From NCBI GenBank assembly GCA_030374765.1, contig JARGXX010000090.1, forward strand, positions 186,001 to 250,000: 64,000 bases of DNA. Direction: 5' to 3'. This DNA comes from Agarophyton chilense. Lineage: Eukaryota > Rhodophyta > Florideophyceae > Gracilariales > Gracilariaceae. Positions within the stretch are counted from its first letter, which is position 1; each line of letters starts with the position of its first letter. Positions 6,511-53,890 of the stretch are shown in pieces. A program made the position numbers and the translations under genes. The notes under the pieces are model-generated. The model worked only from the letters and a program-made list of their open reading frames with translations, was not told the DNA's origin and did no database searches.

Positions 6511-7118
6511 TGTCGTATAGTGGCAGAAGGTCTGACCTTTGAGGTTGTCGATATACTACACTGACCTTGTAAGTGATGGATGCGAGGGATCATCGGCCAT
6601 GCAGCTCCAGGCGAGCTACCATCTAGGTGTTGTCAGCCACGTGTAGTGTTGACATGTACCTTCTGGTTGAGTAATTGTTAGTAATTGTAATTGTAATTAT
6701 ATTAATTTTAGTACAGTAGTGGAGTGGCCACCTGGCACTGTAGCCAGTGCTGGCCAGGTCTCTGACACTAGGTCAGAGACCGTGCCTTGCTGGCACCTCT
6801 CGGGTGATCTGGAGAGTGCAGTCCACTGCATAAGGGAACTGCACCTCCCCCATCCTAACCTGATAACTACAGGCACCACTTGGGTCACAACTATACCTCT
6901 TGGTTCATTGTTTCTCAACTACCACACAGGATTTCCCGCGCGTCGACGCCTACCATCGTTCACCTACACGGTATAGGCTAGTTGCCCCGCCGTTTTCCCC
7001 TGCGGGTTTTCACGGTGCCCTGTTACCATCGAGGTTTATCACGTCTACCTTCTAAGGTTGAGCGTCACCACGCTCCCGAGACAAGACAGTAGCTGACCCC
7101 AGAGGTGATTGTAGGACA
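6511..7118 (+). repeat. 5' LTR of element A
   Basis: A 608-bp direct repeat starting TGTCGTATAG and ending GTAGGACA. It matches 15100-15732 and the solo copy at 48709-49317 along its length. No TATA box is obvious; an AT-rich run of TAATTGTAATTG type lies about 160-200 bp into the LTR. Confidence 0.92.
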
Positions 7119-7121
7119 TTT

Positions 7122-7141
7122 TGGTCTCCCGATTTAGAAAG
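7122..7141 (+). other. Candidate primer-binding site of element A
   Basis: Three bases after the 5' LTR the sequence reads TGGTCTCCCGATTTAGAAAG. The TGG start fits pairing to a tRNA 3' CCA. A near-identical block follows the LTR of the family B copy at 55334. The tRNA could not be identified by eye. Confidence 0.45.
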
Positions 7142-7405
7142 TTTTTTTAGTTTTCGTCGTACCTTCACGGTTCACACGAGATTCCGGGAAGGATTGGACG
7201 CTCGTACACCTATTTGGTTTCAAGAAATCCCGCACAGCAATACAGGATACCACTATTGGTCACAAATGGAACGACCTAAAAGCAATACGCGTGGTGCCAT
7301 AAAGGTTTTAAAGGAGCCCCATCGGCTCAACCGATTCTGGAGAACCCCGAGGAACTGCTCCGGCACCTTCGGGACAAAACTGTAAAGGTACATGGTCCGC
7401 CGCCT

Positions 7406-9436
7406 ATGGCAACGGAACCTCAAAGGGAATTACCAATTGAGGTTGCAGCGGAGGAGCTATAGCCTCAGCTCGAAGAGCGAGCGAAAGCGCTCGTCACCCT
7501 CGCGGTCGAGGATGCATTAACCTTAAAGGAGAAGTTGGATACGCGGATGGTTCCGCCCTCAATGGACGTCGATGCATTTACCCGTATAGTAGGTGACCGA
7601 GCAGCTCAAGAGCTATCGGACAGGATACCTGAAATGGTGAAACAGTATCTCTTTATAGATGCTAGGGAGCATGTTTACCGCGCGGTGCAAGACCTTTGGG
7701 TTTCCGAGGGATTCGCAGAATCCCGACTTACACAGGTGAACATCGCAAAGCGCAAACCACAAGGGTTCCAAATGGGTCATTGCACCCATTCCAAACACTT
7801 ACCTACTGATAGTGAGTACCTACAAGGTTCAAAGTAGAGTCAAGAGGTCCATGGGAAGGTAGATCCTCAAGACATTTATGTGCCACCAATTACTGGTTTC
7901 GTTCAAAAGGATACCCATGGAGGTGGTCCCAAGGACAATTCGTCTGACTCGATGTGTGAGCGACGAAGAAACCGAAAAGGTACGAAGCGGAAAACGAAGA
8001 AGGGAAAGAATCGAGAGGATGATTCAGACCCCGACTCGTCGGACTCCAGTTCCGAAACGAGTTCATCGTGGGATGATGACCGTAAAGGTAAGAAGAAGAA
8101 ACCGAACAGGTCGACGAAAAAGTCGTCGAAAAAGAAGCGAAAGGGTAAAAAGCAATACAATGAGTCGCCCGACTCTGAGTCGTACACCGAAATTGACCTG
8201 GAGCTGCACCAGCCGTTGAACGATAAGTTCACCAAAACGGTTGATTACAGGACTTATCGGTTGATCAACAATTCTTCTGAATACACGCAAGAGGTTGCTC
8301 AAAAGATTACTAAGCACCACAAGAAGCCCAGCTTCCAAATGGGTGACACAAGCTTCACAGGTACGGATCCTATTGCGGTGATTGAGTTTCTACAGAAGTT
8401 CAAGCTTGCATGTGACCAAAATGGTTTTTCCGAGGGCGCTGCTATGTGGCTATTTCAGTTTTACCTGCAAAGAAAAGCATACGACTTGCTGCAGGGTAGG
8501 CTCCGCGGCAATATCTTAACGATGGATGAGGATGGCACAGAGATGTTTGAGTCATACCCAGAAGTGGTCAATTTCCTTTTGGAAACATACGCCACCGATG
8601 AGGTTATCCAAGAGGCTTATTCGGAAGTCGTCGCCTACCATCATAGGTCTGGGAAAACCGAATCGGAGTTTTCGCTCGCGCTGTGGAATCTGGCAACCCG
8701 TTGTGGTAACGTGTTCACTACCTCTAGGTTAAAGTCGCTATTTGCCGACAATGTCGACAAAGCGATCCGTTCCCAGGTACGCAACTACCTGGCCACTAAC
8801 AGAAAGGTAGACTACAATGGACTGGCTCGATACTTCCAGGGCCTTGGAGATACCCTTCGGCTGGGAAAGAGACCAGCTGTGCCTCCAACCTCGAAGGATA
8901 AATCGAAAAGGTCAGTCTTGGAAATTGAAGACACCACACCCTCAGAGGGTACCTCGCACATAGAAGTACCTACAGAGACCGCTATCCACTTGGTAGCGAC
9001 CCAGGGGCGGTTCTCGAAACCTTCGACGGTAGTAAATTGGTCCTTAACGCGTACACCAAACTCGGTGAGGTCGCACAGGATGCAGGGAGCGATCTCCCAT
9101 AACTCGCCATCCACATCCTACGCCATTGCTCCTACCAAACAGGTTTCGAAGCCCCCCTCAATGGGAACGCGAGACCCCCAAACTGGAGGCCTCGTTTGCT
9201 GGTTCTGCCTCGCCACAGACCATTTGGCAAACAATTGCGCTAACTTACCTCCAGGGATGAGAGACCAGTTGATTCAGGCTCGCATGCAGAATCACCAACG
9301 CCTATATGGGTATTCAACGCAAGCACCAAATAGGCTCAAACCACGTACACCGGTACAGGTAAATACCATCGAGGAAACACCAAACTTGGACTCAACCCCT
9401 CCCGTACAGGAGGAAAACCCCGAACGGTTGGCGTAA
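7406..9436 (+). pseudogene. gag of element A (two in-frame stops)
   Basis: One reading frame from the ATG at 7406 to the TAA at 9434-9436 encodes a capsid-type Gag. It is interrupted by TAG at 7460-7462 and 7835-7837, with no frameshift. A Lys/Ser/Asp-rich region (about 7950-8160) precedes a helical capsid-like core with TDPIAVIEFLQKFK and LLETYATDEVI. A CCHC zinc knuckle (CWFCLATDHLANNC, about 9197-9238) lies near the C-terminus. The family B Gag aligns with it over the core. The stop codon overlaps the pol start as TAATG. Gag would form the virus-like particle and bind RNA; the stops make this copy defective. Confidence 0.85.
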
Positions 9437-12194
9437 TGGCCGAACCCAACATGCAAGTGGAAGGCCGATCGATACCCAGAACCTTGAAGGTGAAAGAGAA
9501 CACGTCACAAACAGGTCTGGTTTGTCATATGAAGTACAAAAACTATAAAGTACGTGCTTCAATGTGTTTCTCCGATGGCCTTGCGGTTCCGGTCACCTGC
9601 GTGTTGGATACGGGGGCGGGGCCAAACGTCCTGAACTCCCGCGTCATACCTGAGGCGGTACTTCGGAACTTGAGCCGACCTCTCGACAACAACCCGCTGG
9701 TGGATGCAAATGAGCGCCCATTAAACCTTCGAGGTGTGCTCACCACTGTGGTGCAACTCGGACACCTCAAGGTAAGACTGCAATTCTTTGTTGTCGACCG
9801 TTTACCAAAAGACTGCCTACAAGGTACGAAATTCATTGACAGACATGTCAAAGCAATCCTTCCTGGTTCCCATACCGTCGCCCTACGTCAGGGGGGACGA
9901 ATTGCCATTTTAGGTAATACGGCAACCAAACGGGGATGGTTCGTCAAACCGAAGGAGACGATATCCACCGAAACGGTCTCCAAGAAAGTGCACATTACCA
10001 AACAGGTTGTTATCCCTCCAATGCACCAAATACTGGTACCGGTGTCGTGGGCGACCCCCGTGCTGGTCATACTACAATACCATCCGAGGTTAGCACATCG
10101 ACACCTCACCTTGATGGCCAACGGGATTGTCGACAACATCCCAAATCAACCTTTTGAGGTGTGTCTCAGCAACTTCAGCAGTCACGACGTGAAGTTGCCG
10201 AAAAAAACCAATGTTGGCATCGCACTACCGGCACCACAAGGAGTCTTCACCGTAGCTCACACTGATCTCGGCGAGGTCGCCTTCGGTAAGGAGGGGTGGT
10301 GCGCAAATGCGTCCACAACCCCAAAGGTACCGATAAACACCAACTTGGAATCAAATCTAACCGAGAAGGCATCGGTAGACAAAGAAGAGGAACCTGACCC
10401 TGAGAGGCAATGGCAAGATATAGTCCAGATCAGTGAAGAAAACGGCGAACTGCGGGGCAGTATTCTCGACCTTCTGGAGGAGTTCGAAACCATGTGGTCA
10501 GGCCGTCTGGGCCAAATTAAGGCCACACAGCATCGCATTGAGCTCCTCCCTGACTCGAAGCCGATTTATCAGCAACCATACCATGCAGGTCCGAAGGCGA
10601 GGGAAGTTGAATTCAAAGAAGTGGAGCGAATACTCCAAAAAGGTGTAATTGGACCATCCATCTCACATTGAGCTAATCCCGTGGTCCTGGTTCAGAAGAA
10701 AGATGATAACGGTATGAGATTCTGTGTGGACTATAGGAGGCTCAATAGCGTGACCGTCAGGGACTGGTACCCGATACCTAGAATGGATGAGTGCATCGAC
10801 TCCTTGGGAGATGCGCAGATATTTACAACTTCGGATGCCAATTGTGGTTATTGGCAGGTACCTGTAGGTGAGGAAGATCGAGAAAAATGGACCTTCACGT
10901 GCCATGCAGGTTTGTTTCGCTGCACGCGGATGCCATTCGGGTTGCGCAATGCTCCAGCCACCTTTCAAAGGTCGCGGGACATCATCCTTTCGAAAGTTAA
11001 ATGGACAACCGCCTTGGTATACATCGATGATGTAATAATCTATTCCAGATCGGTAGAAGAGCATTTTGCTCACGTACGCACCATACTAAACCTCCTAGCT
11101 GAGGCGGGGGTGACCCGGAAGCTACGCAAATGCGTCTTCTTTACCAGAACGGTTGAATTCCTGTGCCACATCATAGGCCCTGGTACCCTAGAGGTTGCGC
11201 CGAGCAACATTAGAGCCGTACAGGAGGTCAAGTCGCCACGATCCCAAACAGACGTACGATCCTTTATAGGTTTATGCAACGTCTATCGTCGCTTCGTGAA
11301 GGGATTCGCGAAATAGAGGCTCCACTCAACAAGAAGCTCCAGAAGGGTGAACCTGAACGCTTTGAGAATCTATCGAACGACGAAATGGATACCTTTGAGG
11401 AATTGAAACGAGCGTTTTTGTCGCCGCCAATCTCAGCGTTACCGAAAACAGTTCTACCGTACACGCTGGATACAGATGCATCCCATGCCCAAAGTGGTTG
11501 TTGTCTCAGGCAGGAGCAGCACAACGGAGACAAATTACCTATAGGGTACTGGAGCCGCGCTATGAATGAGGCGGAGCAGCACTACACCGTAACCGAGAAG
11601 GAATGTCTAGCAGTAGTATGGAGCATATTGATGCTCCGTCCATACCTTTATGGTGAGCGCTTTACGTTGCGCACGGACCACGACGCCTTAAGGTGGATCG
11701 TCGGACTTGCAGATGCGTCTGGTAGACTTGCCCGTTGGAGGTTAAGACTGTCGGAGTTTGAATACGACGTACAGTACCGTCCAGGTATCAAGCACAACAT
11801 AGCTGACGATATGTCACGCTTAAACACCTCAGGGTTAGAGACAGAACCTGTGGACAATGACATCCCTTGCTTTTTGCTGTCATCAAACCAAAATGGTACT
11901 GGCGAACACCTAGCGGGAGCTCCCGACCCGGCTCCCACACACGAAGCTCCCAACCCGGAACATATGAACCCTCGAGGTAGCGCTCCCCCGAAAGATCAGG
12001 ACCAAAAATCAGAGACATTTCCCGTTGACCGTCTGGTAGGCCACATGCGAACCTACAATGGTCTGAAGTACACCGCAAGGTGGTACGGCTGGAGGCCAGA
12101 AGGGGACACCCTCGAACCCTGAGCCGCAGTATCCCCAAACTTCCGTATCAGGTATTGGCGCCGTCGCAAGGAGCCGATGCCTGCAGACGGCTAA
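9436..12194 (+). pseudogene. pol of element A: protease, RT, RNase H, chromodomain; integrase deleted
   Basis: Pol starts at ATG 9436-9438, overlapping the gag stop in the -1 frame. The protease shows VLDTGAGPN (about 9604). RT shows FCVDYRRLN, FTTSDANCGYWQVP, MPFGLRNAPATFQR and the catalytic ALVYIDDVI (about 11014). RNase H shows TLDTDASHAQ, TEKECLAVVW and TDHDALRW. A TGA at 10669-10671 falls where related elements have Trp before ANPVVLV. A frameshift near 11310 separates RT from RNase H. After the RNase H end (DDMSRL, about 11810) a short acidic/proline-rich linker leads straight into a chromodomain (DRLVGHM...ARWYGWRPEGD, then TGA 12120-12122, then RIRYWRRR). No integrase zinc finger or DDE core is present. 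Confidence 0.88.
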
Positions 12195-12429
12195 CCTTAG
12201 ACCTTCGTGGTACTCAGGCCCAAGGAAGGGGGAGAGAAGACGTCGTTTTCGGCAGAAGGTGGACGCATATGCGGGTCAGATTACCTACAAGGGAGTACAC
12301 GAAAGAACAACCGAATGTAACAGTAGAAGAGACAAGAAGAGACAACAATTTACTTGAAGAAGGAAACAATAAGGAAGTCAAGTGGCAGGCGGCCACCACA
12401 AGAACCTCAAAGGTGAAGCGACTGAAAGC

Positions 12430-14910
12430 CTAGCCCCCGAATCCGGGAGTAAAAGCTTTCGATTGAGGAGCAGTAGGATCAGGAGGACCCGTGTTATTGA
12501 CTACCCACGAAGGAAAACTGGCAGAAATGCTAGGAGCCATCGAATTAGGAGGTAGCGAAGGAGCAGTAGCCCCGCCACTGGGGAGAGGAGTCGAAACCAA
12601 CAGAGGTTGAACGGGGGGAACCGCCAGAGCGGGTTGCAAAACCGCAGGGTTCGAGTTAGCACCTAGAAAGGGGTCCGTCAAAGGATCAGATGGCGCAGCA
12701 GCAGAAACGCTCGCCAGATTGGCAACCTGACGGGTGCCCAATTGGTACATGTCTAACTGGAACTGGTTCCGGAACTCACCAAGTTGGTTCAGCGCCTTCA
12801 TGTATTGCGCATGGCGCGGCAGCAAAACTTCAAGGAGCGTTAATGCAGCAACCAGGGAGATAGGCCCAGCCCTCTGAAAGTTGGGGACGCAAGCCTGGCG
12901 AATTCGAGCCAGCAAACCGACCACGGCCGGGGAATCCATCATAGGTTGAGGCGGAGAACGAGCAATACCCACCAACAGAGGTCGAACTGGACCAGCAACC
13001 CGCGAGGAGCTCGGTTGATTAAGAGTCACACCAGTAGGGATAGACGACTTCCGATCTTGAGGTAACGGCTCGGACGGGAAGGGGCCAGCATAACAACCAA
13101 CTGGTGTCTCCAGAGTACCGTGATAAGGCTCGGGGCTCGCGGAAGCTCCATAAACAGGAGGCTACGCGGGATTATATTGGGCATGGCGAGGCACAATCTC
13201 CCAAGTTGCGGGATCGAAAGACTCTCAACCTTGATGGGAATCCCAATGGTAATTCTTGCTCTGATCAAGATACGAGTCCAAATCCTTCACGGTATAATCG
13301 GTCCCCTCAACGATGTTCTCGTAACCAAATCGGGAAATATCCTGGGCAAACCTCGAAGGTATGAAGAAGATGCGACCTACAGGTTGAACACCATTTCGGT
13401 ATATGTCAGAGTCGGGATTGCGACAATCCCAATCGATACTGTAATGGGAAGCCTCCAGAGCCAGAATGGCAACCAATACGGTCCACTCCGAAAGGGCAAT
13501 CGACCAAATGAGGTAATACAGCTCTAGTTTCCGCGAAATCTGACTCCCGAAGTACGCCAAGACCGGCGGAGTGGGCACGCTCAGCGATTACGGAACCTCA
13601 TAAGACTCCCACCGCTCTGGTCGAAGCACGTACCAATCGCGTCTACCCTTCGTAGGTTGTGAGAAGTACTCGACGCTATGAAACATATGCATAACGCGAT
13701 TGTAAGAGTTGCGAGTGCGAACGAAACTCTCCGTCGCTGCATACTCGCCCCACCTACTACGGTCAGCCCAATTGATAGTGGTAAAAGGCCGATTCAGGGA
13801 AACCAAGTCAGGGGAAACGGGAAGGTAAGTTTCCGGAATAAACGGGTACTGGCACACTCGCACCACCAATCGACGGTAATAATCCAGCTCCGGTTCGATG
13901 CGCACATACAGCAAGTCGCTCGGATACATCCGCGGGATGTAATAACTCAAAGGTGTATGACGCTGCCGAATCTGGTAACATTCCAATCGACCCTGACGAG
14001 GTTGAGACTCTTGGTCCCTTTTCTTCAATAGCAATGGGACGGAGCGGAGGCTCTCGCAGTCCCAACGGAACAAACCCAAGAGGGTATCCAATTGCAGTCT
14101 AGTGAGAGCTGCCGGCAATGACGAATTCCCCACCACCACAGGCCAATCGTGCTTTAACACGTCACTGTGAGTCAACTGGTCGAAGGCAATACCAAAAGGT
14201 CCATATTGATTCGTCGTCCGGTTTGCCGCACCAAACGCGGGAGTGTGAGCCCAATTGGTTCGTGTTGTCGGAGGAAGTCCACCAATGTGTTGGTTTGGGT
14301 CAGTCGGAGTCCCAGGGGAGAACTGTGTCGTAGGGACAGGCACGCCGCGAAAACCAATGTTGGTAGGCGTTCGAGAAGCCGAGCGAGTCACCCTCTTGGT
14401 AATACCACCGCGTCCATGACCACGCCATGGGCCGCTACCTGACATGGTTGGGAAGGCAGTAGCTCGAACCGACGAAGGAGGTGATGACTCGACCTCCACC
14501 GCCGCGGTGAACATCAGCGGGTATTCATCCTTCTTAAGTGACGCCTCCTCGGTCCGTTCCGAGGAGATGGCAAACTTATCCAACCTTTCCGGTAGTACCG
14601 ACATCGACCTTTCAGGTGCGACAGTTGCCATCGTACGTGCGCGAGCGGTTCCAGACCTTTGAGGTATCGTAAAGCGGGACCAATTCGACCTTAAGGGCAT
14701 AACTTCAGGGGTATCAATCACCTCGGAATCTCCGACTTCTTCAACCTCAATGGTAACCGGCACCTCACATCTCTTGAGCGCTGGTGCTGCCTGTGGGGAC
14801 GACCCACCCCTTCGAGGCATCGATGGCGAATCCACGATGCGGCGCGATGTGCATCGACGTGGCCCCGAATGGGTTCGCACGCGCGCGTGGAGGCGTCGCG
14901 ATCCTGTCAT
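12430..14910 (-). pseudogene. Antisense extra gene (aORF) of element A, function unknown
   Basis: On the strand opposite pol, one frame runs from ATG 14908-14910 for 826 codons. Only three nonsense codons break it (TAA 13588-13590, TGA 13225-13227, TAG 13162-13164), and there is no frameshift. The first 190 residues are basic and low-complexity, including RGHGRGG. A structured-looking core spans about residues 225-580. The rest is Pro/Ala-rich around a helical stretch with RHAQYMKALNQLGEF. The core aligns by eye with the protein encoded at 50105-51493 in family B: GA..TNQ.G, VR.E.E..Y, ELYYLIW/ALYWLLL, R(I/L)..(I/L)P....I.R.(F/L)G, and NIV..T...V...(D/E).LLD/YLD. It converges with pol (236 bp apart) and starts 190 bp from the 3' LTR, which could supply an antisense promoter. 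It resembles no Env, RNase H or other family I know. Confidence 0.7.
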
Positions 14911-15087
14911 AGCCTTGGAGGTAAACCGGAATGCAAAACCGGAAAAAGGTCACGCAATTACCTCAAGGGAGCGCGCGTCGCGCACCGTGAGCAACCGCCA
15001 GCGGACACCACTCCGATGCCTGCGCCGCTGTCGCTCGCTATACCTTTATGGTTTGATGGAAGTAGATACGGGGCGTGTCTCACGGGT

Positions 15088-15097
15088 AGGAAAGGGG
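15088..15097 (+). other. Polypurine tract of element A
   Basis: AGGAAAGGGG lies two bases before the TGTTG start of the 3' LTR, the position at which plus-strand DNA synthesis is primed. Confidence 0.7.
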
Positions 15098-15099
15098 TC

Positions 15100-15732
15100 T
15101 GTTGTATAATGGCAGAAGGTCTGACCTCTGGGGTTGTCGATATAGTACACTGACCTTGTAGGTGATGGATGCGAGGGATCATCGGCCATGCAGCTCCGGG
15201 CGAGCTACCATCTAGGTGTTGTCAGCCACGTGTAGTGTTGACATGTACCTTCTGGTTGAGTAATTGTTAGTAATTGTAATTGTAATTATATTTATTTTAG
15301 TACAGTAGTGGAGTGGCCACCTGGCACTGTAGCCAGTACTGGCCAGGTCTCTGACAGTAGGTCAGAGACCGTGCCTTGCTGGCACCTCTCGGGTGATCTG
15401 GAGAGTGCAGTCCACTGCATAAGGGAACTGCACCTCCCCCACCCTAACCTGATAAATACAGGCACCACTTGGGTCACAACTATATTTTTTGGTTCATTGT
15501 TTCTAAACTACCACACAGGCTTTCCCGCGCGTCGACGCCTACCATCGTTCACCTACAAGGTATAGGCTAGTTGCTCCGCCGTTTTCACCTGCGGGTTTTC
15601 ACGGTGCCCTGTTACCATCAAGGTTTATTACGTCTACCTTCTAAGGTTGAGCGTCACCACGCTCCCTACGGTTGAGCGTCACCACGCTCCCGAGACAAGA
15701 CAGTAGCAAACCCCAGAGGTGATTGTACGACA
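15100..15732 (+). repeat. 3' LTR of element A
   Basis: A 633-bp copy of the family A LTR, starting TGTTGTATAA and ending TACGACA. It is 25 bp longer than the 5' LTR because GGTTGAGCGTCACCACGCTC is duplicated at about 15645-15690. Scattered substitutions relative to 6511-7118 indicate an old insertion. Confidence 0.92.
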
Positions 15733-16993
15733 TCGGCCAGGAAAAAATACCATAAGCTACAGTACTAAGGTCTAAATAAAAGGTCACAAAATGAAAACAA
15801 ATGACTTCGTCTTTACAGAAATTAATACAAAACGGTTTCAAAAACCACAAAATTAGAATAGAACAGAAGATTTTAATGGTTTTTGTAGTCAAAAAGTCTA
15901 TGATTAAAAATACCTAAACATTATAAAAGCTTATTCAACTTCTTTCTTTCTCTACCAAAATTCTCATTCAGCAGCAATGGGAAGGTAATCGTGCCTGACT
16001 CCCGAAGAAAATGGAATATTTGAAGCTCTTTTTTAGGAAAACAATTCTTTATAAAAACTGCACAAAAGCCTGTCTGAAGTCGTAAATTTGAATAAACTAT
16101 CTTTGAAACAAAAAAGTATGGAAAAAAGTTTGTTACCGAATATAATCCTAAGTTATCAAGAAAAGCGAGTCGTCTCCTCCAACGAGAAACAGCAAAACAA
16201 ACATTATTCCATATCTCAACTAAAATATAATCTTAATTTACCTATGATTCCACGTCGAGTGCAGCAGATACTATCATTTAAATCTAACATGAAGTACATG
16301 AAGATCAAGAAAGCACCAAAATTGACTCTTAAACACGTAGAAGCAAGGCTAAATCTGGCTCGTAAGTATTATGCTTTGTATTTAGCACAGTGGTCTAAAA
16401 TTTATTGAAACGATTTACATAAAGAAGAAAAGGTCTTATCTAAAATAAAAAACTAATGGAGAAGGGGTAATGGGTTTGGGTGCTTTTTGTGACGATGGAT
16501 ACAGAACTCAAGCTCTTTTAGTTGAAAATCAAGATTCTAAAAAGTACTGCAGCACTTCAGAGAACTTTTTGCTACCACTATTTTCAAAGATCTACAGTAG
16601 AAGTTGGGTATTTGAGCAGGACAATGCCGCTATTCACCGTTTTTATTATACGAAAGAGTGGATTGGTTCTAAAAATATTGAGGTAATGGAGTGGCTTGCA
16701 CGGAGTCTTAATTTGAACCTTATTGAGAATGTGTGGGTCGCGGAACGTGTGGAATGTTCCGGCACTGCTGTAACACACGTGTAGGATGTGCCAGCAGCGC
16801 CGGGAGTTCCTACATCTTTGTTGACGCCGACGTTGCAGTGGTATTCTGGTGATGTCAGGCGTAGTTGTTACATTTTAATTGGTTAGTGTGCTGCTGTACT
16901 GGCTTCTAGAAGCCAATAGAGTAACCTAGAAGCACACCGTAGTAATAAGTGAGTATCAATGCGTTGCAGCCCATTCTGTGGGTTCTAGATCTC

Positions 16994-17000
16994 TATAAAA
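16994..17000 (+). promoter_or_regulatory. TATA box in the LTR of element C
   Basis: CTCTATAAAAGGGCC is a strong TATA element. Transcription would start about 25-30 bp downstream, leaving a leader of roughly 840 nt before the Gag-Pol ATG. The same box is at 22752-22758 in the 3' LTR. Confidence 0.65.
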
Positions 17001-17102
17001 GGGCCTCTGAAGTCTCCGAACACCATCTCGGACGACCTCAAGCCAACAAACACCCAATTCAACTATTTCCTTTGGCTTCGAGCCCTTCAACTATAACAAA
17101 AG

Positions 17103-17223
17103 GTGAGGCGTTTGCCGCCTAGGGTCCAGTGAGGCGCTTGCCGCTGGAGGAGCAACCCTATAATTATCTAAAATCGGTGAGGCGTTTGCCGCCGTATAGA
17201 GGACCAGTGAGGCGTTTGCCGCT
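17103..17223 (+). repeat. Four hairpin-forming 17-bp repeats in the element C leader
   Basis: GTGAGGCG(T/C)TTGCCGC(C/T) occurs at 17103-17119, 17129-17145, 17177-17193 and 17207-17223. Each copy can fold on itself (GGC...GCC). They lie in the transcribed leader downstream of the TATA box and are duplicated in the 3' LTR. Role unknown; packaging, translation or dimerisation signals are possible. Confidence 0.8.
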
Positions 17224-17864
17224 GGAAGGTGCACCCTCTATCAGCCCACTGTACCGGTTGAAGCGCCTTTGGCGTGGACGGGAGACGGCTTGTGTGTACC
17301 AACGGTACTGCGTCTGGCAAGGGGTCCCCCACAGAGTGAAAAGCCTGTGTCGGTCGGTAAGACCTGGAGGATTCCTGGGATTCAGTACTGGACGGGAAGC
17401 TGCCACAAGTGGTGCCGCGTAACCTTTCCTGCAAAAGGCCAGCTTGGGTATATGAGTGAAGGCATATCTCGCTGTCATTAGCTCTCCTCGGGAAGCCTTG
17501 TAGGGATTGTATACGCGTGCTTCTGGTTGGCGCAGAAGTACGTAGGCTGCAGAAATCGTCTCACATCCGGAGTGTCTTATCGGAAGTCGGGAGTCTGACT
17601 CCTAGTGACCATTGACATAAGTCTTTCGTTGCGTATCGTCCTAAGAAGATTTTGGAGAATTATCGCTAGGTTGAGCTTCGTTCTCCCCTTGTTATTTTAT
17701 CTATTTTTATCTGACGGGTTGAGTATTCTCCCTGTCTTGCCGTTCTACTTATCTCTTTGCGAAACCGAACTACACTTATCTGTACGGGCCTTTTTTGGCT
17801 ACGAGGGACTCCCATTTACATTGACTTTTACTGTCAAGTTGGCCCACCGCGTCACACTCCCAAG

Positions 17865-20800
17865 ATGGCGCCCACATGGTACTCTCGAGGAGGCAGTTCC
17901 GTGGAAGCCGGCCCTTCAGTTACTACCTTCGATGGTTCATCTATTGATGTTGTGAAGTTCTTTTTCTATTTCGAAAATGTTGCTATGAGAGGAAAATCCA
18001 AGGAAGAGATGGCATTAGAATTGCTCGGTTTCCTAGAGAAGGAGGCGTTCGAGTTTTATTATGATACTTATGCTGTCAATGGTTCACTCTCTGAAGAAGC
18101 AAAAGATTATGAATCTGTCAAGAAAACCTTCATCAATCGATTCGGAGAAGTTAAAGAACCTGAGGAAGACATTCGATTGGCAATATCGGCAAAATTGGAT
18201 TACGGTGACTTAGTTGGTTCAATGAGTTACATGGATAACCTCTTTCAGAAGGCGGGTTTTAATGCCGAGGCGAAGTTTGGCCTTTTGAAAAAGGCTGTTA
18301 TGGGGTACGCAGACCTGGCCCAGTTTGTCATCTTTCGAGGTGCAGAAAATTACGATGAGTTAAAGGTTCAAGTGAAAGCCTTTGACACTGCCAAGAAAAC
18401 GATTGGACCACATGTCTCGTTCTTTACCCCACCAAAGCGTATTGTCCCTAATCCTAGGATCCTTGAAGGTCCTTCTTCGTCCCATGGTTTGGAGTCTAAG
18501 GTCGACAAGTTAGCAGATCAGCTTTCACAGCTCTCTCTCATGGTGAAGAAATCACAGACAGATCGCCGAGACTCAGAAAGGTCTTGTTCTTACTGTAGGA
18601 AGCCCGGACATTACGCTTCTCAGTGTGACTCAAACCCGCATCGTGATACGAGATGTAATCGGTGTGGCAAGATGGGACATTCTGAAATCACCTGTTGGCG
18701 ACGGATATGGCCCGACGAAGCTCGAAAGGTATCAAACAATTCTGAAGAACAGAGAGAAACCTCAAATAATGATCGAAAAGGGCCTGATCCTGTTTCAATT
18801 GTGACGGAGGACTCAGAAACGACTGATGTCGTCGCTGCAATGAAAAGAACCGTGGACGGAGAAGCGCTACCAAAACAGCTTCGCTCGGAAGGCAAAGCGC
18901 CCATTCCGTTCATGTTGAACCCGCCTCTTCATGAAGAAAGAGTTCGTCGTAAGAAGATTACCGAAGGTAAGCCAAGAAAGCAGAAGCAGAGGAAGCCGAA
19001 GAAAGAGAACATACCAGATCATGCAAGCAAGTATAATGTAATTACAGAGTTGGCAAACGCCTCTTCTGGGATCACGTTTGGCCAGTTGATGCGCGGAGAT
19101 GCCGACGATGCCAAGAAACAGATCAGAAAGCTCATTAGTCGCCGAAGCACTGTTCGCCGTCCTTTTGTGGGCCCTGTTGCCAAGCACCCTAGACGTTTAA
19201 AAGCTGTTTCTGTCGGAATATTCGGGAGGGAAACTGAAGCTCTGCTTGATTCTGGCGCTGTTCCTAATCTATTCTCAAAGAAGTTGTGCGAAAAGCTTTC
19301 TCTGAACCCCAAGGAAACCTCAAAAAAGATTACTGTCGCCAATGGAGACAGTGCTTCATGCAGAGGAGTTCTTCACGACGTGCCAGTCTCCTTCGGAGGT
19401 ATATCAGTTCCGCTAGATTTTCTTGTCATTGAAGGGCCACCGTTCGATGTCATCATCGGGTGCCCAACTCTAGAGATGCTACAGGCTTGCTTAGACCTTG
19501 GCAACCAACAAGTGAAGATGAAGATTGCCGGACAGAAGATTATACTCGGTTTTGACTACGCCCGTGTTGAGGCCCCAGATGGAGAAGGATCTGATACGGA
19601 TAGTGAAGACTTTACGTCAGATTCTGATGCCGCTGTTGAGGATACTGTCTCTGAAGATGAAGAACTGGTCGTGGCTCTTACTGACAAAGTGAGAATTGAT
19701 GAAGATGAGATTATACCGGAACTGAATATATCTGGATCCGATCCTCAGGAAGAACTTTTGCTGTCCAAGTTGTCTCACATACCTACGAAAGAAAAAGGAA
19801 AATTTATTTCGAGTTTGAAGGAGACCAATGTCATCGCTTGGACCCTGATGGACCTCCGCCCAGCAGATGTTCCAGTATCACATTCGTTCGAACTGACTAT
19901 CAACAAGCCTATATATTTCAGAGCGAGAAGAATGTGTCCTAGGCATAATGAGTTCATCCGGGAAGAGATCGATTTATTACTGGAGGCAGGTATCATTACT
20001 CCTTCTGCATCAGCGTGGTCCTTTCCTGTTGTTATCGCAACCAAGAAGGATGGTAGCCCCAGGTTCTGCGTGGATTACCGAGAACTCAACCGTGTCATGA
20101 AAGCCGATCGATGGCCGTTGCCACGTATGGAAGAGATCTTTGATAACTTAGGCGGATGCTGTTTCTTTACAACGCTTGATCTTTTCACTGGATACTGGCA
20201 AGTGAAAATGTCGGAAGAGTGCAAAGAAATGACTACTTTCGTATGCAGATATGGGACCTTCATGTTCGAAGTAATGCCATTTGGACTTATGAATGCTCCT
20301 TCTACCTTTCAGCGTATGATGGACGTCGTCCTCCGTGGGCTTTCCTTCGTCCGGGTCTATATCGACGACGTTGTAATCTTTTCGAGAAGTCTCGAAGAAC
20401 ATGTACGGCACATCCGGTCTGTCTTGGAACGAATAAGTATGCATGGCCTTAAACTGAAGTTATCAAAGTGTTTCTTTGCCCTTCCTAAGGTACATCTTCT
20501 CGGCCACGTTATTGACGCGAGTGGCGTTTCAGTATATCAAGCAAAGATTGATAAGATTCAGGAGGCACCCATACCTTCCACCACGACGGAGTTGAGATCA
20601 TTCCTTGGCCTAGCCGGATACTATCGTCGCTTCATCAGAAACTTTGCTGAGACTTCGGCAGTGCTTCACAGTGCTACCTCGGGAAATAAAACCCTGACTT
20701 GGACTGAAGACATGCTTGACGCCTTCCACGGGTTGAAGAAAAAGTTAACTCAGCCACCAGTGTTGTCATTCCCGGACTTTGAGAAACCTTTCATTGTTGA

Positions 20801-22478
20801 GACAGATGCGTCGAGTGTGTCGCTTGGGGCCGTGTTGTCTCAGAAGAAAGAAGACGGTAGGATCCACCCCTTGCAGTTCGCTAGTCGCACGATGACTGCA
20901 GCGGAAAGGAACTATTCTGCATCTGAGAGAGAAGCATTGGCAGTCATATTTGCCCTGAAAAAGTTCAGAGTGTATCTTCTCTCCTCTGTTCCGTTCAAAG
21001 TTATTACGGATCATATGGCTCTCCGATATACCTTTCAGAAACGTGATATACATGGTCGCCTAGCCCGTTGGCTCGATTTCCTTGCCGAGTATGACTTTGA
21101 GATAGTATATCGGGCTGGGAAGGACAACGGTGCTGCCGACTATCTTTCGAGGATTCTCCATGGTGATAAGGTTGAGTTGCACGAGGATGAAGGAGACCTC
21201 GTATGCCTCATAGGTGACACTGATCAATTTCGTGGACTTGAACCATACTATGCAAACATTGCCCGTTATCTCTGTGGAATGTCAATGAACGAACATGACA
21301 GTCATGTTCGCCAAATCGTGAGACGGAATGCGAAACGGTTCTTAGTTTGGGAAGGAAAGCTATTCAGGCGCACTACAAAGGGTCTACAAGTCGTACCAGA
21401 TGTTTCTCATAGGCAGAGTATACTGAGGTCTTTTCATGACGATATCGGACACTGGGACGTCAAGGCTACAAGGAAGTTTATTACGGAGAGGTTTTGGTGG
21501 CCTACAATGTATCGAGAAACTGGGGATTACGTCAAAAGCTGTGACGCTTGTCAGAGGATGGCACCACTTCCACAGTACTATACTAGCCTTCACACACCGG
21601 TTTCGTCTCTGTTTGATGTGTTTTCAATTGACTTTGCCGGTCCTTTCCAGAAGAGCAAGGCAGGAAACCGATTTCTCTTGGTTTGTGTTGAGCATCTTAC
21701 TGGATGGCCGATTGCCGCCCCGACAAGGAATTCAACGTCAGAAACTGTAGTAGAATTTGTGAAAAGTGGAATCATCGCCCCTTTTGGCCTTCCCCGTGTC
21801 ATCGTATCCGACAATGCGACCTGTTTCACGTCCATGTCACTCGTTTCGTTCATGAAAGAGAAAGGAATCAAGTGGAAAACTGTTCTGGCTTACGCACCTA
21901 TGTCCAATGGTAGGGCTGAGAGAATGGTTGGTACACTTAAACGAGCTCTTGGAAAGACTGTCTTAGCCCGTGATTCAAGCTGGGATGATGACCTCCCTTC
22001 AGTTCTATATGGATATCGACGTCGCCATCTTGCCAGCGGAATATCGCCTTTTGAATTGCTTTATGGCGTGAAACCACGTATGACATCGTATGACTCGGGT
22101 GTGGCGGTGCAGCATGGGGAGTCTTCACAGATATTTAGGACCTTGGAGACTTTAGCTTCATCTAATCCTCGGGCAGCGCGTGCTGAGATGAGAGTTACTA
22201 GGGATATTCCGGAGAAGAAGATAAGAAAGTTCCAGGTTGGAGATGAGGTTTTGGTGGCGAAGGGGAAGGCGCTGAATACCACAGTGAAGTGGCCGGCATT
22301 CTCCTCAAAGTACTTTGGACCTTGCCGTGTTGTCCGTGCAGATCACCCCAGGTACACTTTGGTCTCACCACACAACCGCTATACTCGTCAAGGGATACAT
22401 TGTCGACGCCTCAAAATCTATCTGCCGCGACCATTGGACGCTAAGGTTTCCGGGTTGCCGCGGCGTAGCAACCGTTGA
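17865..22478 (+). CDS. Gag-Pol polyprotein of element C (intact, single frame)
   Basis: The ATG at 17865 (AAGATGG, strong context) lies in the last 12 bp of the 5' LTR, giving 1537 residues. An upstream in-frame ATG-type start at 17757 is less likely. Gag ends in two CCHC knuckles (CSYCRKPGHYASQC and CNRCGKMGHSEITC, from residue 241). Protease follows (LLDSGAVPN, Asp462), then RT (FCVDYRELN, MPFGLMNAPSTFQR, VYIDDVVIF with Tyr832) and RNase H (VETDASS, Asp981; REALAV; TDHMALRY). Integrase has a zinc finger (HDDIGH...CDACQR) and a catalytic triad Asp1256, Asp1316 and Glu1352 with 35 residues between the last two. There is no frameshift between gag and pol and no chromodomain. The stop lies 11 bp before the 3' LTR. 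Every key residue I checked is present. Confidence 0.96.
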   Translation: MAPTWYSRGGSSVEAGPSVTTFDGSSIDVVKFFFYFENVAMRGKSKEEMALELLGFLEKEAFEFYYDTYAVNGSLSEEAKDYESVKKTFINRFGEVKEPEEDIRLAISAKLDYGDLVGSMSYMDNLFQKAGFNAEAKFGLLKKAVMGYADLAQFVIFRGAENYDELKVQVKAFDTAKKTIGPHVSFFTPPKRIVPNPRILEGPSSSHGLESKVDKLADQLSQLSLMVKKSQTDRRDSERSCSYCRKPGHYASQCDSNPHRDTRCNRCGKMGHSEITCWRRIWPDEARKVSNNSEEQRETSNNDRKGPDPVSIVTEDSETTDVVAAMKRTVDGEALPKQLRSEGKAPIPFMLNPPLHEERVRRKKITEGKPRKQKQRKPKKENIPDHASKYNVITELANASSGITFGQLMRGDADDAKKQIRKLISRRSTVRRPFVGPVAKHPRRLKAVSVGIFGRETEALLDSGAVPNLFSKKLCEKLSLNPKETSKKITVANGDSASCRGVLHDVPVSFGGISVPLDFLVIEGPPFDVIIGCPTLEMLQACLDLGNQQVKMKIAGQKIILGFDYARVEAPDGEGSDTDSEDFTSDSDAAVEDTVSEDEELVVALTDKVRIDEDEIIPELNISGSDPQEELLLSKLSHIPTKEKGKFISSLKETNVIAWTLMDLRPADVPVSHSFELTINKPIYFRARRMCPRHNEFIREEIDLLLEAGIITPSASAWSFPVVIATKKDGSPRFCVDYRELNRVMKADRWPLPRMEEIFDNLGGCCFFTTLDLFTGYWQVKMSEECKEMTTFVCRYGTFMFEVMPFGLMNAPSTFQRMMDVVLRGLSFVRVYIDDVVIFSRSLEEHVRHIRSVLERISMHGLKLKLSKCFFALPKVHLLGHVIDASGVSVYQAKIDKIQEAPIPSTTTELRSFLGLAGYYRRFIRNFAETSAVLHSATSGNKTLTWTEDMLDAFHGLKKKLTQPPVLSFPDFEKPFIVETDASSVSLGAVLSQKKEDGRIHPLQFASRTMTAAERNYSASEREALAVIFALKKFRVYLLSSVPFKVITDHMALRYTFQKRDIHGRLARWLDFLAEYDFEIVYRAGKDNGAADYLSRILHGDKVELHEDEGDLVCLIGDTDQFRGLEPYYANIARYLCGMSMNEHDSHVRQIVRRNAKRFLVWEGKLFRRTTKGLQVVPDVSHRQSILRSFHDDIGHWDVKATRKFITERFWWPTMYRETGDYVKSCDACQRMAPLPQYYTSLHTPVSSLFDVFSIDFAGPFQKSKAGNRFLLVCVEHLTGWPIAAPTRNSTSETVVEFVKSGIIAPFGLPRVIVSDNATCFTSMSLVSFMKEKGIKWKTVLAYAPMSNGRAERMVGTLKRALGKTVLARDSSWDDDLPSVLYGYRRRHLASGISPFELLYGVKPRMTSYDSGVAVQHGESSQIFRTLETLASSNPRAARAEMRVTRDIPEKKIRKFQVGDEVLVAKGKALNTTVKWPAFSSKYFGPCRVVRADHPRYTLVSPHNRYTRQGIHCRRLKIYLPRPLDAKVSGLPRRSNR
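17877..17894 (+). other. Primer-binding site of element C (inside the coding frame)
   Basis: TGGTACTCTCGAGGAGGC begins directly after the LTR end CCCACA, with the TGG expected for pairing to a tRNA CCA end. It is translated as part of the Gag N-terminus. The primer tRNA was not identified. Confidence 0.5.
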
Positions 22479-22489
22479 GCTTGGGGCTG

Positions 22490-23634
22490 TGTGGGTCGCG
22501 GAACGTGTGGAATGTTCCGGCACTGCTGTAACACACGTGTAGGATGTGCCAGCAGCGCCGGGAGTTCCTACATCTTTGTTGACGCCGACGTTGCAGTGGT
22601 ATTCTGGTGATGTCAGGCGTAGTTGTTACATTTTAATTGGTTAGTGTGCTGCTGTACTGGCTTCTAGAAGCCAATAGAGTAACCTAGAAGCACACCGTAG
22701 TAATAAGTGAGTATCAATGCGTTGCAGCCCATTCTGTGGGTTCTAGATCTCTATAAAAGGGCCTCTGAAGTCTCCGAACACCATCTCGGACGACCTCAAG
22801 CCAACAAACACCCAATTCAACTATTTCCTTTGGCTTCGAGCCCTTCAACTATAACAAAAGGTGAGGCGTTTGCCGCCTAGGGTCCAGTGAGGCGCTTGCC
22901 GCTGGAGGAGCAACCCTATAATTATCTAAAATCGGTGAGGCGTTTGCCGCCGTATAGAGGACCAGTGAGGCGTTTGCCGCTGGAAGGTGCACCCTCTATC
23001 AGCCCACTGTACCGGTTGAAGCGCCTTTGGCGTGGACGGGAGACGGCTTGTGTGTACCAACGGTACTGCGTCTGGCAAGGGGTCCCCCACAGAGTGAAAA
23101 GCCTGTGTCGGTCGGTAAGACCTGGAGGATTCCTGGGATTCAGTACTGGACGGGAAGCTGCCGCAAGTGGTGCCGCGTAACCTTTCCTGCAAAAGGCCAG
23201 CTTGGGTATATGAGTGAAGGCATATCTCGCTGTCATTAGCTCTCCTCGGGAAGCCTTGTAGGGATTGTATACGCGTGCTTCTGGTTGGCGCAGAAGTACG
23301 TAGGCTGCAGAAATCGTCTCACATCCGGAGTGTCTTATCGGAAGTCGGGAGTCTGACTCCTAGTGACCATTGACATAAGTCTTTCGTTGCGTATCGTCCT
23401 AAGAAGATTTTGGAGAATTATCGCTAGGTTGAGCTTCGTTCTCCCCTTGTTATTTTATCTATTTTTATCTGACGGGTTGAGTATTCTCCCTGTCTTGCCG
23501 TTCTACTTATCTCTTTGCGAAACCGAACTACACTTATCTGTACGGGCCTTTTTTGGCTACGAGGGACTCCCATTTACATTGACTTTTACTGTCAAGTTGG
23601 CCCACCGCGTCACACTCCCAAGATGGCGCCCACA
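22490..23634 (+). repeat. 3' LTR of element C
   Basis: 1145 bp, differing from the 5' LTR by one noticed substitution near 23163. It is followed by GAATG, the second copy of the target duplication. Confidence 0.97.
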
Positions 23635-30816: not shown

Positions 30817-31127
30817 GACTGGCGCACGCGGCGGCAGTGGGAGGGCGGAATGGGGGAGCAAAGTGGGAAATTGTGGGATGGGGGGTGGAAGGAAAGGGGA
30901 CGAGGGAATGAGCGCGAGAAGAGAGGGCGCAAGGTGCACGGCGGAACGCGAAGGGAGAAGCGGCGCGAGACGGACGCTCGAGAGCGTGCACACAGGCACA
31001 GGGCACAGCGGGGGCGGTTTGGGGGGAGAGCGGAGGGGGGGGAGAGGGGCGGGGAAGGGAGAGGGGGGGGGAGGGAGAGCGGAACGCAGCCGGCAAGGTT
31101 ACGCGCGCGCGGGCGTGGTTGTGTTGT

Positions 31128-31130
<3 letters not shown>

Positions 31131-31160: not shown

Positions 31161-31163
<3 letters not shown>

Positions 31164-32498: not shown

Positions 32499-32506
32499 CC
32501 TAGCTT

Positions 32507-49706: not shown

Positions 49707-52310
49707 TTGCTCCTTCACAAATCTCCGTCTTTAGGATTCGACCGTCACGGCGAAGTCCAAATTGCCTCACACCTTCCTGGGGGTCTGGCTCCAATTGGAC
49801 CTATGGGTGAACCTCCAATCCTGCTTTCAGGGTCGGAACGTCGTGATCCTCAGCGTCCTGATGGCCTGGACACGAGCAGTGCCGTGTCCGACATGTCGAC
49901 GTCTTATGACCATCCCGGGGGTTAGTTGTTCTCTTTACCAGTGGGCGCGACGGGGCGTCGCATCGCCACCATTCTCGAGGGTATCAGTGCGTATGAGCTG
50001 ACCCTTGGCGCCAGGTTGGCAATTAATTCACCTAAATTAGGGTACGCGCACCCGGGGGGGTCCTTGCCGCTTTTCCTATCCTGCGCTATTCCTTTGGCGA
50101 CCCTATGCGCGTCGTCCGCCGTGAACCACGGTCCGCGCTTCGTCCATTCAGGGTCACGTCGATCATTCTGCCCGATTTGATTTCATATTCCCTCCTTCCC
50201 GTCGTGGTATTCCTCCATTGGTCGCGCGCGATGCCGAACTCGCCTTATAAGCCCGTCGTATACGCCACTCTCCCTCCAGACTTTGTCACTTTCGTTGGTT
50301 CCCCTTTCCATTTCCCGGCGGTCCAACCTGTGGGCAGCGGCGCTAGGGCATCGAACAACCAAGCGGGAAGCTTTTCGGGATACGAAGTGGTTTATGAGCG
50401 CCCCGGGGACCGCTATGACCATACGATCGGACGAAATCCCCGGGCAGTGCGTCAGGCCATTTTTCCGTCCTCTGTGAATGAATAACAGAGGTTTTGTCAT
50501 GTGTATCTCGACGCCCGGAGGTTCTCTAAGATCCCCGATTTCCGGAGGGGCAGTAATAACGTGCGCAGCGTCTCGAGGTATAACCGTTGGTTGCATTGTT
50601 CTGTGGATCCGCGTTCGGCGACGCGCTGTCGCACCCTCATCCAAGCTGACATGCCGTGCGTCCGTTGTGAGGAGGAAGCCAAGTACCAGTTCAGAGTGAA
50701 CAAACTCCTTTCGGACCTCTACGAGGACTTTCTCTCGCCTCATGGGAGATTTCCTCCGGCGGGTCACAAGCTCTTGGCGTTTATGTGCTTCCGACCGCCG
50801 TATGACCGCCTGTTTTGGATGTGCAATAGGGTCTATTGGAACGAGATGCACGAGTCCGATGGTCGTTTGCGTCAATCCTTGGAGTTCTTCTCCTGTTGGC
50901 ACAAGTTGGAGTTTCACGACATGAGCGCAGACAAACGTCCCCGGCTAAATCTATCGCTTCCCCGCGTGAATGAGAACCAATGGGCCCTGTATTGGCTTCT
51001 CTTGCCACTCCTCTTGGTTCCCATGCCGTCCGTAATGGCGTATCATTCGTCCCAACTCATGGGCGATGACAATGACCGAAGGTCTTGGTTGTCCTGGCAG
51101 GTACTCTTCGTTGAGTTCGGCGTGATGTCTCTTATTGCATTCCTGGATACCGCGAAGTACGGAATCCGTGGTAATGTCCGTTCGGGTGATTGGAGGGTAT
51201 GGCACGACGAGCACATACGCGGTTCTCGAGGTCGTCTACTCCCGCTTCCGGTCTCCATGATCCGTTTGCTAAGGAACCTGGGCATCCAGAATATCGTCCG
51301 TAGGACCCAGATCGCCGTTTCGGAGGCTGAGGCCCTTTTGGATCATGTCCTACAGTTGAAGTGGAACAAGACTCCCGGGTTCCTTTGGCATGACCACGAT
51401 ACTGGCTCGTTCACGCCGATCCCGCTACATCCGCAAAGGTCGGGATGTCACTCGTGCCTGTCCCGCCAAGCCTTTGAGAAATCAACCATCTGACATTCCG
51501 AGGCATCATGTGCCTGACTAAAACCCGAAGGCCATTGGTTTCGATCCCCTGTGCGTCGAGCCTGATTTTGAAGCCACGCCGCTGGTTCCTACTGGTATGT
51601 CCGATGGAGAGTAATTCCGTGAAGATCCCTTCATCCTACCGTGGAGGGCGTCAATCTTCCGGTCGAGTCCGCTATTATGTTGCCGACGGCTTCCCCTTCT
51701 CCAGCTTCTCCAGGGGATGCTCCTCAGGATGAACTCTCATATGAGCCGCCTGTCGCCCAAGTGGACATCCCTCACAGAGAGGTTACTGTCGAAGCCTAAA
51801 GTTTTGTAGGTGATGCAATGGCTCAGACGTCCACTGGGGGGCGTCTACATCGCTCCGTCCTCTCCATTGCCGCACTTTCCCGCTTCGGTCACGGCTGCAA
51901 CCGCGGATCTCCTTCATGTCTGTCGTACCGTTGGTATTACTGCCTCGATGGACATTACCACAGTCCTGAAGGAATATTGCTCCTGGTAGCGTCACTCGGC
52001 GCGCTACGCCGCAGTTTTCCAACAATGTCTATATATGAAGGCCAGGATGGTTAATATCCTGCAGCAGAATGCACAAATGATGTCCCAGATGGTTATTGCC
52101 GACTTGGATGCCCGGTATGGTCTAAATTTGAGCGACTGGGAGGCTTCCGAGGGTGACAATAGTTCCTCAGGTGAATCTTCGCCGAAGACGCGTGCTGGGC
52201 TGGCTGGTACCGGGCCAATTGGTACAATAGGCTCTTCGGGTGACCCTAGTTCCGGTTTTGCTCCTGAAAGTTCCAATGAGGACACCGGAGCTACTCCTGC
52301 GCCACCCTAG
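49707..52310 (+). pseudogene. Antisense extra gene (aORF) of the family B element
   Basis: This lies opposite to the pol remnants at 52490-55149 and occupies the same place as the element A aORF. The longest open part is 50501-51493 (330 residues), preceded by 50105-50485 and 49707-49925 and followed by 52035-52310, with frame changes and stops between. Collinear matches to the element A protein include GA..(T/N)NQ.G (about 50340), VR.E.E..Y (50650-50690), ALYWLLLPLLL, R(I/L)..(I/L)P....I.R.(F/L)G..NIV, T...V...(D/E).LLD and a helical YMKA segment at 52029. Overall identity is low. The core is rich in Trp, Tyr and Arg; the tail is Ser/Gly/Pro-rich. Function unknown. Confidence 0.62.
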
Positions 52311-52489: not shown

Positions 52490-52894
52490 TCAGGTATCGC
52501 CTGAGGATTGACTTTGTTCCCTGATGCGGGAGCTGCGACGAACCGTCGTGTCGGGAGGCGTATCGAGAAGCGTTTTGGTATTATTCGGGCCAATGGTTGC
52601 CCCTTCCTGAAGGCTGCGCTCCGTGCTGCCGATTTGGCGCCAATAGCGGGCGATAAAATTAGCCGGAATAGTCTGAGGCTTTTGCCAATTGTCTTCCTCA
52701 GGTGTGTAGCCGAACCAAAGGACGTGATAGAGCGTTATCCCATCCTCTCCTCGACCGGCGGAGGCTAATCGTCCAATAATGTATTCCTGTTGGTATTCCT
52801 CCTCCGGAAGGAGAGTGTGGTCCAGAGGGGCGAATCCACCGGAGTCGGTCGAGAGAGATCGGTCGTCGTCATTGGCGTCGACTAATGGGTCCAT
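52490..52894 (-). pseudogene. Chromodomain tail of family B pol
   Basis: A 135-codon frame with YIIGRLASAG, YHVLWFGYTPEEDNW and ARYWRQ, homologous to 74-589. The tail has a single TIGPNN unit rather than the repeat seen there, and ends RRSSRIREQ. It follows the integrase on the same strand after a short frame break near 52920, where TGTCTAAGAAGC introduces a stop. Confidence 0.82.
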
Positions 52895-53047
52895 GGGGAT
52901 AGTCGGGTCCGCGGATATTGTCTAAGAAGCTGTGAGGACCTGAGCCTCGACCTGAGGTCGTGGTGATTCCGTTGGGCCAAGAGGCTGATATATTGATGGT
53001 CCGGAGGAACTGGGAGCTCGTGTCACCCGATCAATGGACACGGTGTC

Positions 53048-53890
53048 CTATAGGCCGTCAATTAGTATCGTAATTGGGTGTTGACTGGCCTTGAGGACTT
53101 TATATGATCCCGGCGAGCGGGGTAGGGGTTTTCGTGTAGTATCCTCGAGGTCATCACTGTCTTTCGGTGGCCAGGCCAGATAAACCAATTTTCTTTTCCC
53201 AATGGTAGGTGTGTTCCAGACGGTTTTGTCTAAATTGACCTTGTAGCGTCGTAGGGCTTTGGTCAGTACAGCTCTAGTCAATTGGATAATGCTGGCGATG
53301 CGTCGGCGCGAGTAGTGCTTCGACTGAGTAGAAATCTTTCCTTTGGTTATGTCCTGGAGTATAATAGACTCCTGAATGTCAACAGCTATTGGCGGTGGCG
53401 ATCTCGTTAGCGTTAGATCGAAAGGTGTTGTCCCCGTGGAAGCGTGTACTTTCGTATTGTAGGCATAAACCAGTGGCTCAACGTAGTAGTCCCAGTCCAA
53501 TTGGTGCTGCGATACGTAGTGTGCCAATCGGTCCAGAAGGGTACGGTTGAAGCGTTCTGCTTGACCATTGGTTTGCAGGTGGTATGCCGTAGTAGTTACA
53601 TGTTTGATACCTACGGTAGCACAAACGCGCGAAAAGAGTTTGGATACAAACTGGCTGCCATTATCCGTAAGGAGGTAGAGTGGCCTGCCATAGGGATATA
53701 CCCAGTGGGAAAAGAATGCTGTGGCGACATCCGTTACTGTAGTCTTTCCTAGAGGTTGGGCTCGGGTAATTTTTGTAAACCTATCGGTTATTTCCAAGAC
53801 GAACCGTTTCCCATGGGACGACTTGGGCAAAGGTCCAAATATATCCATTGCAACGAATTCCATCGGGCCTGCGGCGGGGAAAAGTTTCAA
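53048..53890 (-). pseudogene. Integrase of family B (minus copy)
   Basis: A 280-codon frame with the catalytic residues in MDIFGPLPKSSHG (Asp), LLTDNGSQF (Asp) and NGQAERFNRTLLDRL (Glu), and a C-terminal part with KRKLVYLAWPPKDS. The zinc-binding part lies upstream (about 53900-54060) in the same frame behind stop codons: GHLGGRR...C-x2-C. It is an inverted copy of 60524-61400 with about 5 percent amino-acid differences. Confidence 0.85.

What the first reader, a model, noticed from the sequence alone, without database searches (positions are those of the whole stretch)
12430..14910. Conserved antisense gene between chromodomain and 3' LTR in a red-algal-type chromovirus
Seen: opposite to pol, one 826-codon frame with only three nonsense codons and no frameshift, in an element whose own gag and pol are broken. 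Every stop could come from one C-to-T change. The same slot in family B (49707-52310) encodes a low-identity but collinear protein. Two diverged families keeping it implies selection. Known: some plant Ty3/gypsy lineages (for example Grande, RIRE2, Retand) carry unrelated antisense ORFs in this position. Inference: an accessory protein, perhaps driven by an antisense promoter in the 3' LTR; neither copy shows signal peptide and envelope features.
Basis: partly seen in the sequence, partly recalled or inferred. Interest (0 to 1): 0.87.

Follow-up and report, generated by a model that had tools for sequence, protein, structure and literature searches.

The report
Antisense gene in seaweed retrotransposons
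A family of jumping genes in a red seaweed carries, on the strand opposite to its replication genes, an extra protein gene of no known kind that natural selection has kept working, which extends to red algae a puzzle known so far mainly from land plants.

Summary
At 12430-14910 (-), between a chromodomain-like pol end and the 3' LTR of a Ty3-type element, lies a decayed copy of a real gene of about 800-826 codons. The genome holds at least 96 loci of it, this one included; five show open frames of 839-876 aa, two of them read here. In 30 copies, variants private to one copy look neutral (N:S 2.65, expectation 2.48), while variants in six or more copies are constrained (0.61); RT and integrase behave alike. 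So selection acted on the replicating lineage, not on this dead copy. Family B has a homologous protein in the same slot (24% identity, E=6e-18); a transcript ORF of unnamed origin is about 62% identical. No Pfam or PDB relative was found and folding failed. The all-C-to-T claim for the stops is wrong. Not every pol copy has the gene: 12 of 14 checked, chosen for having no listed match, lack it at the expected place. Best reading: an accessory protein for the element's own replication, like plant antisense extra ORFs but unrelated. Expression strand and function are unproven.

The parts
6511..7118 (+). 5' LTR of element A (TG...CA)
   Evidence: self-match to 15100-15732, K2P 0.042
7880..9436 (+). 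gag ORF, 518 aa, CCHC-like motif seen by eye
   Evidence: no Pfam hit
9436..11316 (+). protease and reverse transcriptase, broken into two ORFs
   Evidence: Pfam PF13975 E=0.00053, below cut-off; PF00078 E=2.8e-28
11274..12122 (+). RNase H followed directly by a chromodomain-like end; integrase removed by a deletion at 11912/11913
   Evidence: Pfam RNase H; relatives hold integrase there; junction spanned only by this copy among 40 scored
12430..14910 (-). antisense accessory gene, likely start ATG at 14910, three internal stops in this copy
15100..15732 (+). 3' LTR of element A; purine-rich stretch just before it
50186..52307 (+). family B homologue of the antisense gene, broken in this copy
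   Evidence: tblastn with two open B copies 57-72% identity; blastn 77.9-80.3% to four other B copies
52493..52921 (-). chromodomain-like end of family B pol
   Evidence: Pfam Chromo E=0.00079, below cut-off
53051..53890 (-). family B integrase core
   Evidence: Pfam rve E=1.7e-11; 61% identical to an A-family integrase over 115 aa
49318..49768 (.). LTR-like repeat of family B on the upstream side of the B antisense gene (LTR by inference)
   Evidence: matches repeated flanking sequence in three of four other B copies

Best explanation
It is an accessory protein gene of a Ty3-type LTR retrotransposon clade in a Gracilariaceae red alga, lying tail-to-tail with gag-pol between the chromodomain-like pol end and the 3' LTR. 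Shown: the gene was under protein-level purifying selection while the element replicated, and it is homologous in two diverged families. Inferred: it is read from a promoter of its own in or beside the 3' LTR, and the protein (basic, probably disordered N-terminal part; W/Y-rich core of about 350 residues; helical C-terminal part) acts in the nucleus on the element's own transcription, RNA handling or integration, as proposed for the antisense extra ORFs of plant Grande and Retand. I put the selected accessory gene at 0.93 and the nuclear regulator at about 0.4.
For: 96 loci, window included, scored of 391 candidates. Singletons N:S 977:369, variants in six or more copies 25:41; Fisher (1 versus 3+) p=5e-7, still p=0.009 without CpG-prone sites. 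The only other frame with a similar ratio shares its third positions with the gene and lies on the strand whose frames hold 16 or more stops. Same pattern in RT and integrase. Each third of the gene shows it (p 0.022, 0.0019, 0.00088). A-B homology. Integrase cores are 61% identical where the antisense proteins are 24%, so the gene is old and fast-changing. Three B copies read to that end carry a PPKK-R-RL motif near the C-terminus, like a nuclear signal; it is degraded in the window copy and was not read in the fifth.
Against: No expression by strand is known; the transcript ORF P0009 could come from full-length element RNA. The B basic motif is not in A. Twelve of 14 RNase H copies checked lack the gene at the expected place, though these were picked for having no listed match, so it may be dispensable or supplied in trans. 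A hydrophobic helix could mean a membrane protein. RNase H and protease pieces show only a weaker, non-significant fall in N:S, so the pol yardstick is uneven. No fold was obtained.
Confidence: 0.6

Rival explanations
1. Chance or by-product open frame without a protein.
For: The window copy is decayed, and 28 of 30 copies aligned hold at least one stop.
Against: Frame-specific purifying selection, homology in family B, intact frames; no long sense frame overlaps.
Confidence: 0.02
2. A membrane or envelope-like protein encoded in antisense.
For: A hydrophobic helix at the same place in A, B and P0009, Kyte-Doolittle up to 2.47.
Against: Basic N-terminus of the A protein without a signal peptide by eye; the second-best stretch in each of six proteins scores 1.36 or less; an acidic residue lies inside the helix in most rows shown.
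Confidence: 0.12
3. A second structural (capsid-like) protein derived from gag.
For: Helical prediction only, at low confidence.
Against: Profile comparison with the element's own gag ORF: probability 0.3%; no Pfam hit.
Confidence: 0.06
4. A captured host gene or a nested DNA-transposon gene now carried along.
For: Origin unknown; a DNA-transposon ORF lies beside one copy (L058).
Against: Three protein searches returned only four A. chilense proteins and one transcript ORF, none named as a host or transposon gene (their genomic context was not checked); same slot in both families.
Confidence: 0.1
5. Only the antisense RNA matters, pairing with genomic RNA to regulate it.
For: Antisense transcripts are proposed to act so in other elements (PMC7264820, two of three parts read).
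Against: Selection is on amino acids, in one frame.
Confidence: 0.05

Closest known systems
Retand lineage antisense ORFs (TRP28, PF04195)
   Different: Retand is a non-chromovirus plant lineage with TRP28; here no Pfam match even at E<=10, and pol ends in a chromodomain-like stretch
Grande gene23 of maize and its RIRE2-type relatives
   Same: antisense gene in the same slot; reported nuclear protein with its own promoter (PMC7264820, two of three parts read)
   Different: another host kingdom; no sequence was on hand to compare; promoter and location here unknown
Boty of Botrytis and Sclerotinia
   Same: antisense extra ORF in a non-plant LTR element (named in PMC7264820)
   Different: fungal; sequence not compared
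HBZ/APH-2 antisense genes of HTLV
   Same: antisense genes whose products are nuclear (PMC11963269, passages)
   Different: retroviral proteins of another kind; resemblance in arrangement only

Membership tests
antisense extra ORFs between pol and 3' LTR (aORF-3R) | antisense ORF between pol and 3' LTR | tested here: met
antisense extra ORFs between pol and 3' LTR (aORF-3R) | present in most copies, conserved like gag-pol proteins | tested here: inconclusive
   conserved like RT and integrase; but of 40 RNase H places, window included, 15 shown with it, 12 without it at the expected place, 13 not examined
Retand | TRP28 domain PF04195 | tested here: not met
   no Pfam family at E<=10 in seven proteins
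Retand | flowering-plant host | tested here: not met
   red algal genome
Retand | RT in the Retand lineage | not tested
   no RT tree was made
Grande-type gene23 | own promoter and nuclear protein | not testable with these tools
   no stranded RNA or localisation data
chromovirus | chromodomain at the C-terminus of integrase | tested here: inconclusive
   Chromo hits at E 0.0008-0.058 in three proteins, all below cut-off, none in several others; the stretch recurs in 20 of 20 pol loci, some with a stop in it, which were chosen for having the antisense gene
chromovirus | RT in the chromovirus clade | not tested
   no reference RT tree was made
env-like gene | signal peptide and membrane anchor | tested here: inconclusive
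   one hydrophobic helix, no signal peptide by eye

The most novel reading that the evidence does not exclude
A protein family seen only in Gracilariaceae-type red algal retroelements, which arose separately from the plant antisense ORFs and does the same job in the same slot; that is, an antisense accessory gene evolved more than once in Ty3-type elements because opposite-strand expression itself is useful, for instance as a late or copy-number-sensing switch.
Probability: 0.3. Interest if true: 0.7.

Novelty: new variant of a known kind. Interest (0 to 1): 0.52.

Why it matters
Antisense extra genes in LTR elements are described from flowering plants and from fungal Boty, with no function settled (PMC7264820, two of three parts read; PMC11963269, passages). 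An unrelated, selected protein in the same slot in red algae, with intact natural copies and two diverged families, is an independent case for asking what such genes are for. It also shows that dead copies with long open frames can be told from selected genes by sorting variants into private and shared.

Tried and rejected
Rejected: chance frame, sense-gene shadow, gag-derived protein. The idea that the whole element family lacks integrase was dropped: five relatives scanned hold it and the deletion junction was seen in this copy only. The idea that the gene is in every copy was dropped: of 14 RNase H places picked because no antisense match was listed for them, 12 had none at the expected distance; in six of the 12 A-type LTR sequence lies in that stretch (in one only 39 bases), one has a B-type LTR-like match, one integrase, and four gave no match to anything tested. 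First-look candidate counts fall from 411 (RNase H) to 260, 170 and 191 for the C-terminal, middle and N-terminal parts; these counts are rough. Two structure models failed (mean pLDDT 34 and 38), so no fold search was run. PDB profile searches gave nothing below E=0.3. An upstream alignment for promoter signals failed beyond the first 300 bp or so of the LTR, so nothing is claimed. Papers: the rows listed by searches (8-20 rows asked each, often of many more) named no antisense gene in a red algal LTR element; passages of PMC12477816, PMC12502185 and PMC10388701 held none either. One search did not run.

Full report
What is there. The window lies in an 80 Mb, 135-contig genome. Protein-database hits are four Agarophyton chilense proteins and one transcript ORF without a named organism, and 244 residues of one A. 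chilense protein match the genome at 99%, so the genome is that species or very near it (inference). Published Gracilaria chilensis statistics (76 Mb, 138 contigs, 48.9% GC; PMC10388701, passages) are close. Element A runs from 6511 to 15732 with LTRs of K2P 0.042. Its order is gag, protease, RT, RNase H, chromodomain-like end, then the antisense gene, then the 3' LTR.

The copy is damaged. Integrase is missing by a deletion at 11912/11913. Of 20 pol pieces from other copies, 16 match A on both sides of that point with about 1.5 kb more between, one (L044) breaks earlier on the upstream side, and three (L047, L049, L058) match only downstream of it. Integrase domains were found in five of them (L040, L044, L045, L048, L056). 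None of the other 39 scored places spans the junction. Pol is also split into several ORFs. The antisense frame has three stops.

Is it more than chance? The other five frames over the slot have 16-38 stops. In the own genome 96 loci, window included, were scored of 391 candidates; the others match the 440-aa first part at 74-83% identity; 20 of 96 (window included) have no stop in the matched stretch, and five of these show open frames of 839-876 aa. In 30 copies aligned over 801 codons, two have no stop and the median is three.

Selection. I sorted variants by how many of the 30 copies carry them. Private variants arise mostly after insertion; shared ones arose while the element replicated. 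N:S is 977:369 for singletons (neutral expectation about 2.5), 224:107 in two copies, 98:58 in three to five, 25:41 in six or more; Fisher, one copy versus three or more, p=5e-7. Stop-making changes fall from 57 to 10 to 1 to 0. Without CpG-prone sites p=0.009, with transversions only p=0.0016, with both filters p=0.035. Four of five control frames do not show it; the fifth, the sense-strand frame that shares third positions with the gene (by arithmetic), does (p=6e-5), but the sense frames hold 16 or more stops in the window copy. RT (0.36, 14 copies) and integrase (0.45, 15 copies) show the same fall for variants in three or more copies; RNase H (1.3, p=0.09) and the protease-RT piece (1.1, p=0.06) a weaker, non-significant one. 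Against a simple story: mean pairwise omega in A is 0.63, which I read as post-insertion noise.

Family B. The window's B copy (about 50186-52307, +) lies opposite to B's pol (chromodomain-like 52493-52921, integrase 53051-53890, both -). B has 121 scored matches, window included, of 857 candidates; 12 of 121 (window included) have no stop in the match. Two B copies are open for 748 and 698 codons. Among five B copies omega is 0.27-0.58 in ten pairs. A and B proteins match at 24% identity, E=6e-18, profile probability 97.8%, while integrase cores are 61% identical and RNase H 50%. A and B RNase H are closer to each other than to the compact element at 16.7-22.8 kb (34-37%), whose gag-pol ORF runs up to its 3' LTR, leaving no room for such a gene. 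The gene was therefore probably present in the A-B ancestor and evolves faster than pol.

Is it in every copy? No. Of 40 RNase H places, 13, window included, have a listed antisense match in the right arrangement (compared with 34 listed places: 33 of the 97 rows and one). Of 14 of the other 27 that were fetched, two have it and 12 lack it at the expected distance; 13 were not examined. A-type LTR sequence lies in that stretch in six of the 12. In one of these the C-terminal part of the gene is still beside pol (C75:458556-459144), so at least one is an internal deletion.

What the protein is. No Pfam family even at E<=10 in seven proteins, no PDB relative, and no further homologue in three protein searches. 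P0009 covers the core only, 263 aa, 54-63% identical to A-type sequences and 24-26% to B. Features seen: a basic, S/P/R-rich N-terminal part in A; a W/Y-rich core with one strongly hydrophobic helix shared by A, B and P0009; a basic PPKK-R-RL motif at the C-terminus of three B copies. AlphaFold gave no usable model.

How it probably works. Shown: a protein under selection in the replicating lineage, old, lying tail-to-tail with pol. Inferred: expression from an opposite-strand promoter at the 3' end, nuclear action on the element's own cycle. The inference leans on plant cases: Grande gene23 is reported nuclear with its own promoter, and Retand TRP28 is predicted to bind DNA (PMC7264820, two of three parts read; PMC11963269, passages). 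TRP28 is not found here and gene23 could not be compared, so this resembles them in arrangement at most; it is not a member of Retand.

Novelty. The kind (antisense gene between pol and 3' LTR) is known. The protein family, its presence in red algae and in an element with a chromodomain-like pol end were not found in print in the searches listed under Tried and rejected.

Noticed in passing
16723-22780: Compact Ty3-type element with 99% identical LTRs (over 300 bases) and one 1573-aa gag-pol ORF; no antisense gene.
   Followed up: partly
48711-49317: An A-type LTR sits directly against a B-type LTR-like repeat (49318-49768), as if inserted there.
   Followed up: partly
52968-55151 and 59263-61446: Inverted 2.2 kb repeat, 96.6% identical, of pol in family B type elements.
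   Followed up: no
55157-64000: A second B-type element on the + strand; no significant homologue of the antisense gene in 61-64 kb or in 4 kb beyond the window (L063; best E 0.6).
   Followed up: partly
L058:1266-3125: 620-aa ORF matching Transposase_21 (tnp2) beside an A copy.
   Followed up: no
45827-46063: Two 106-base direct repeats 131 bases apart, 84% identical.
   Followed up: no
30001-36000: GC-rich stretch (62-65%) with strong negative GC skew at 34-36 kb.
   Followed up: no
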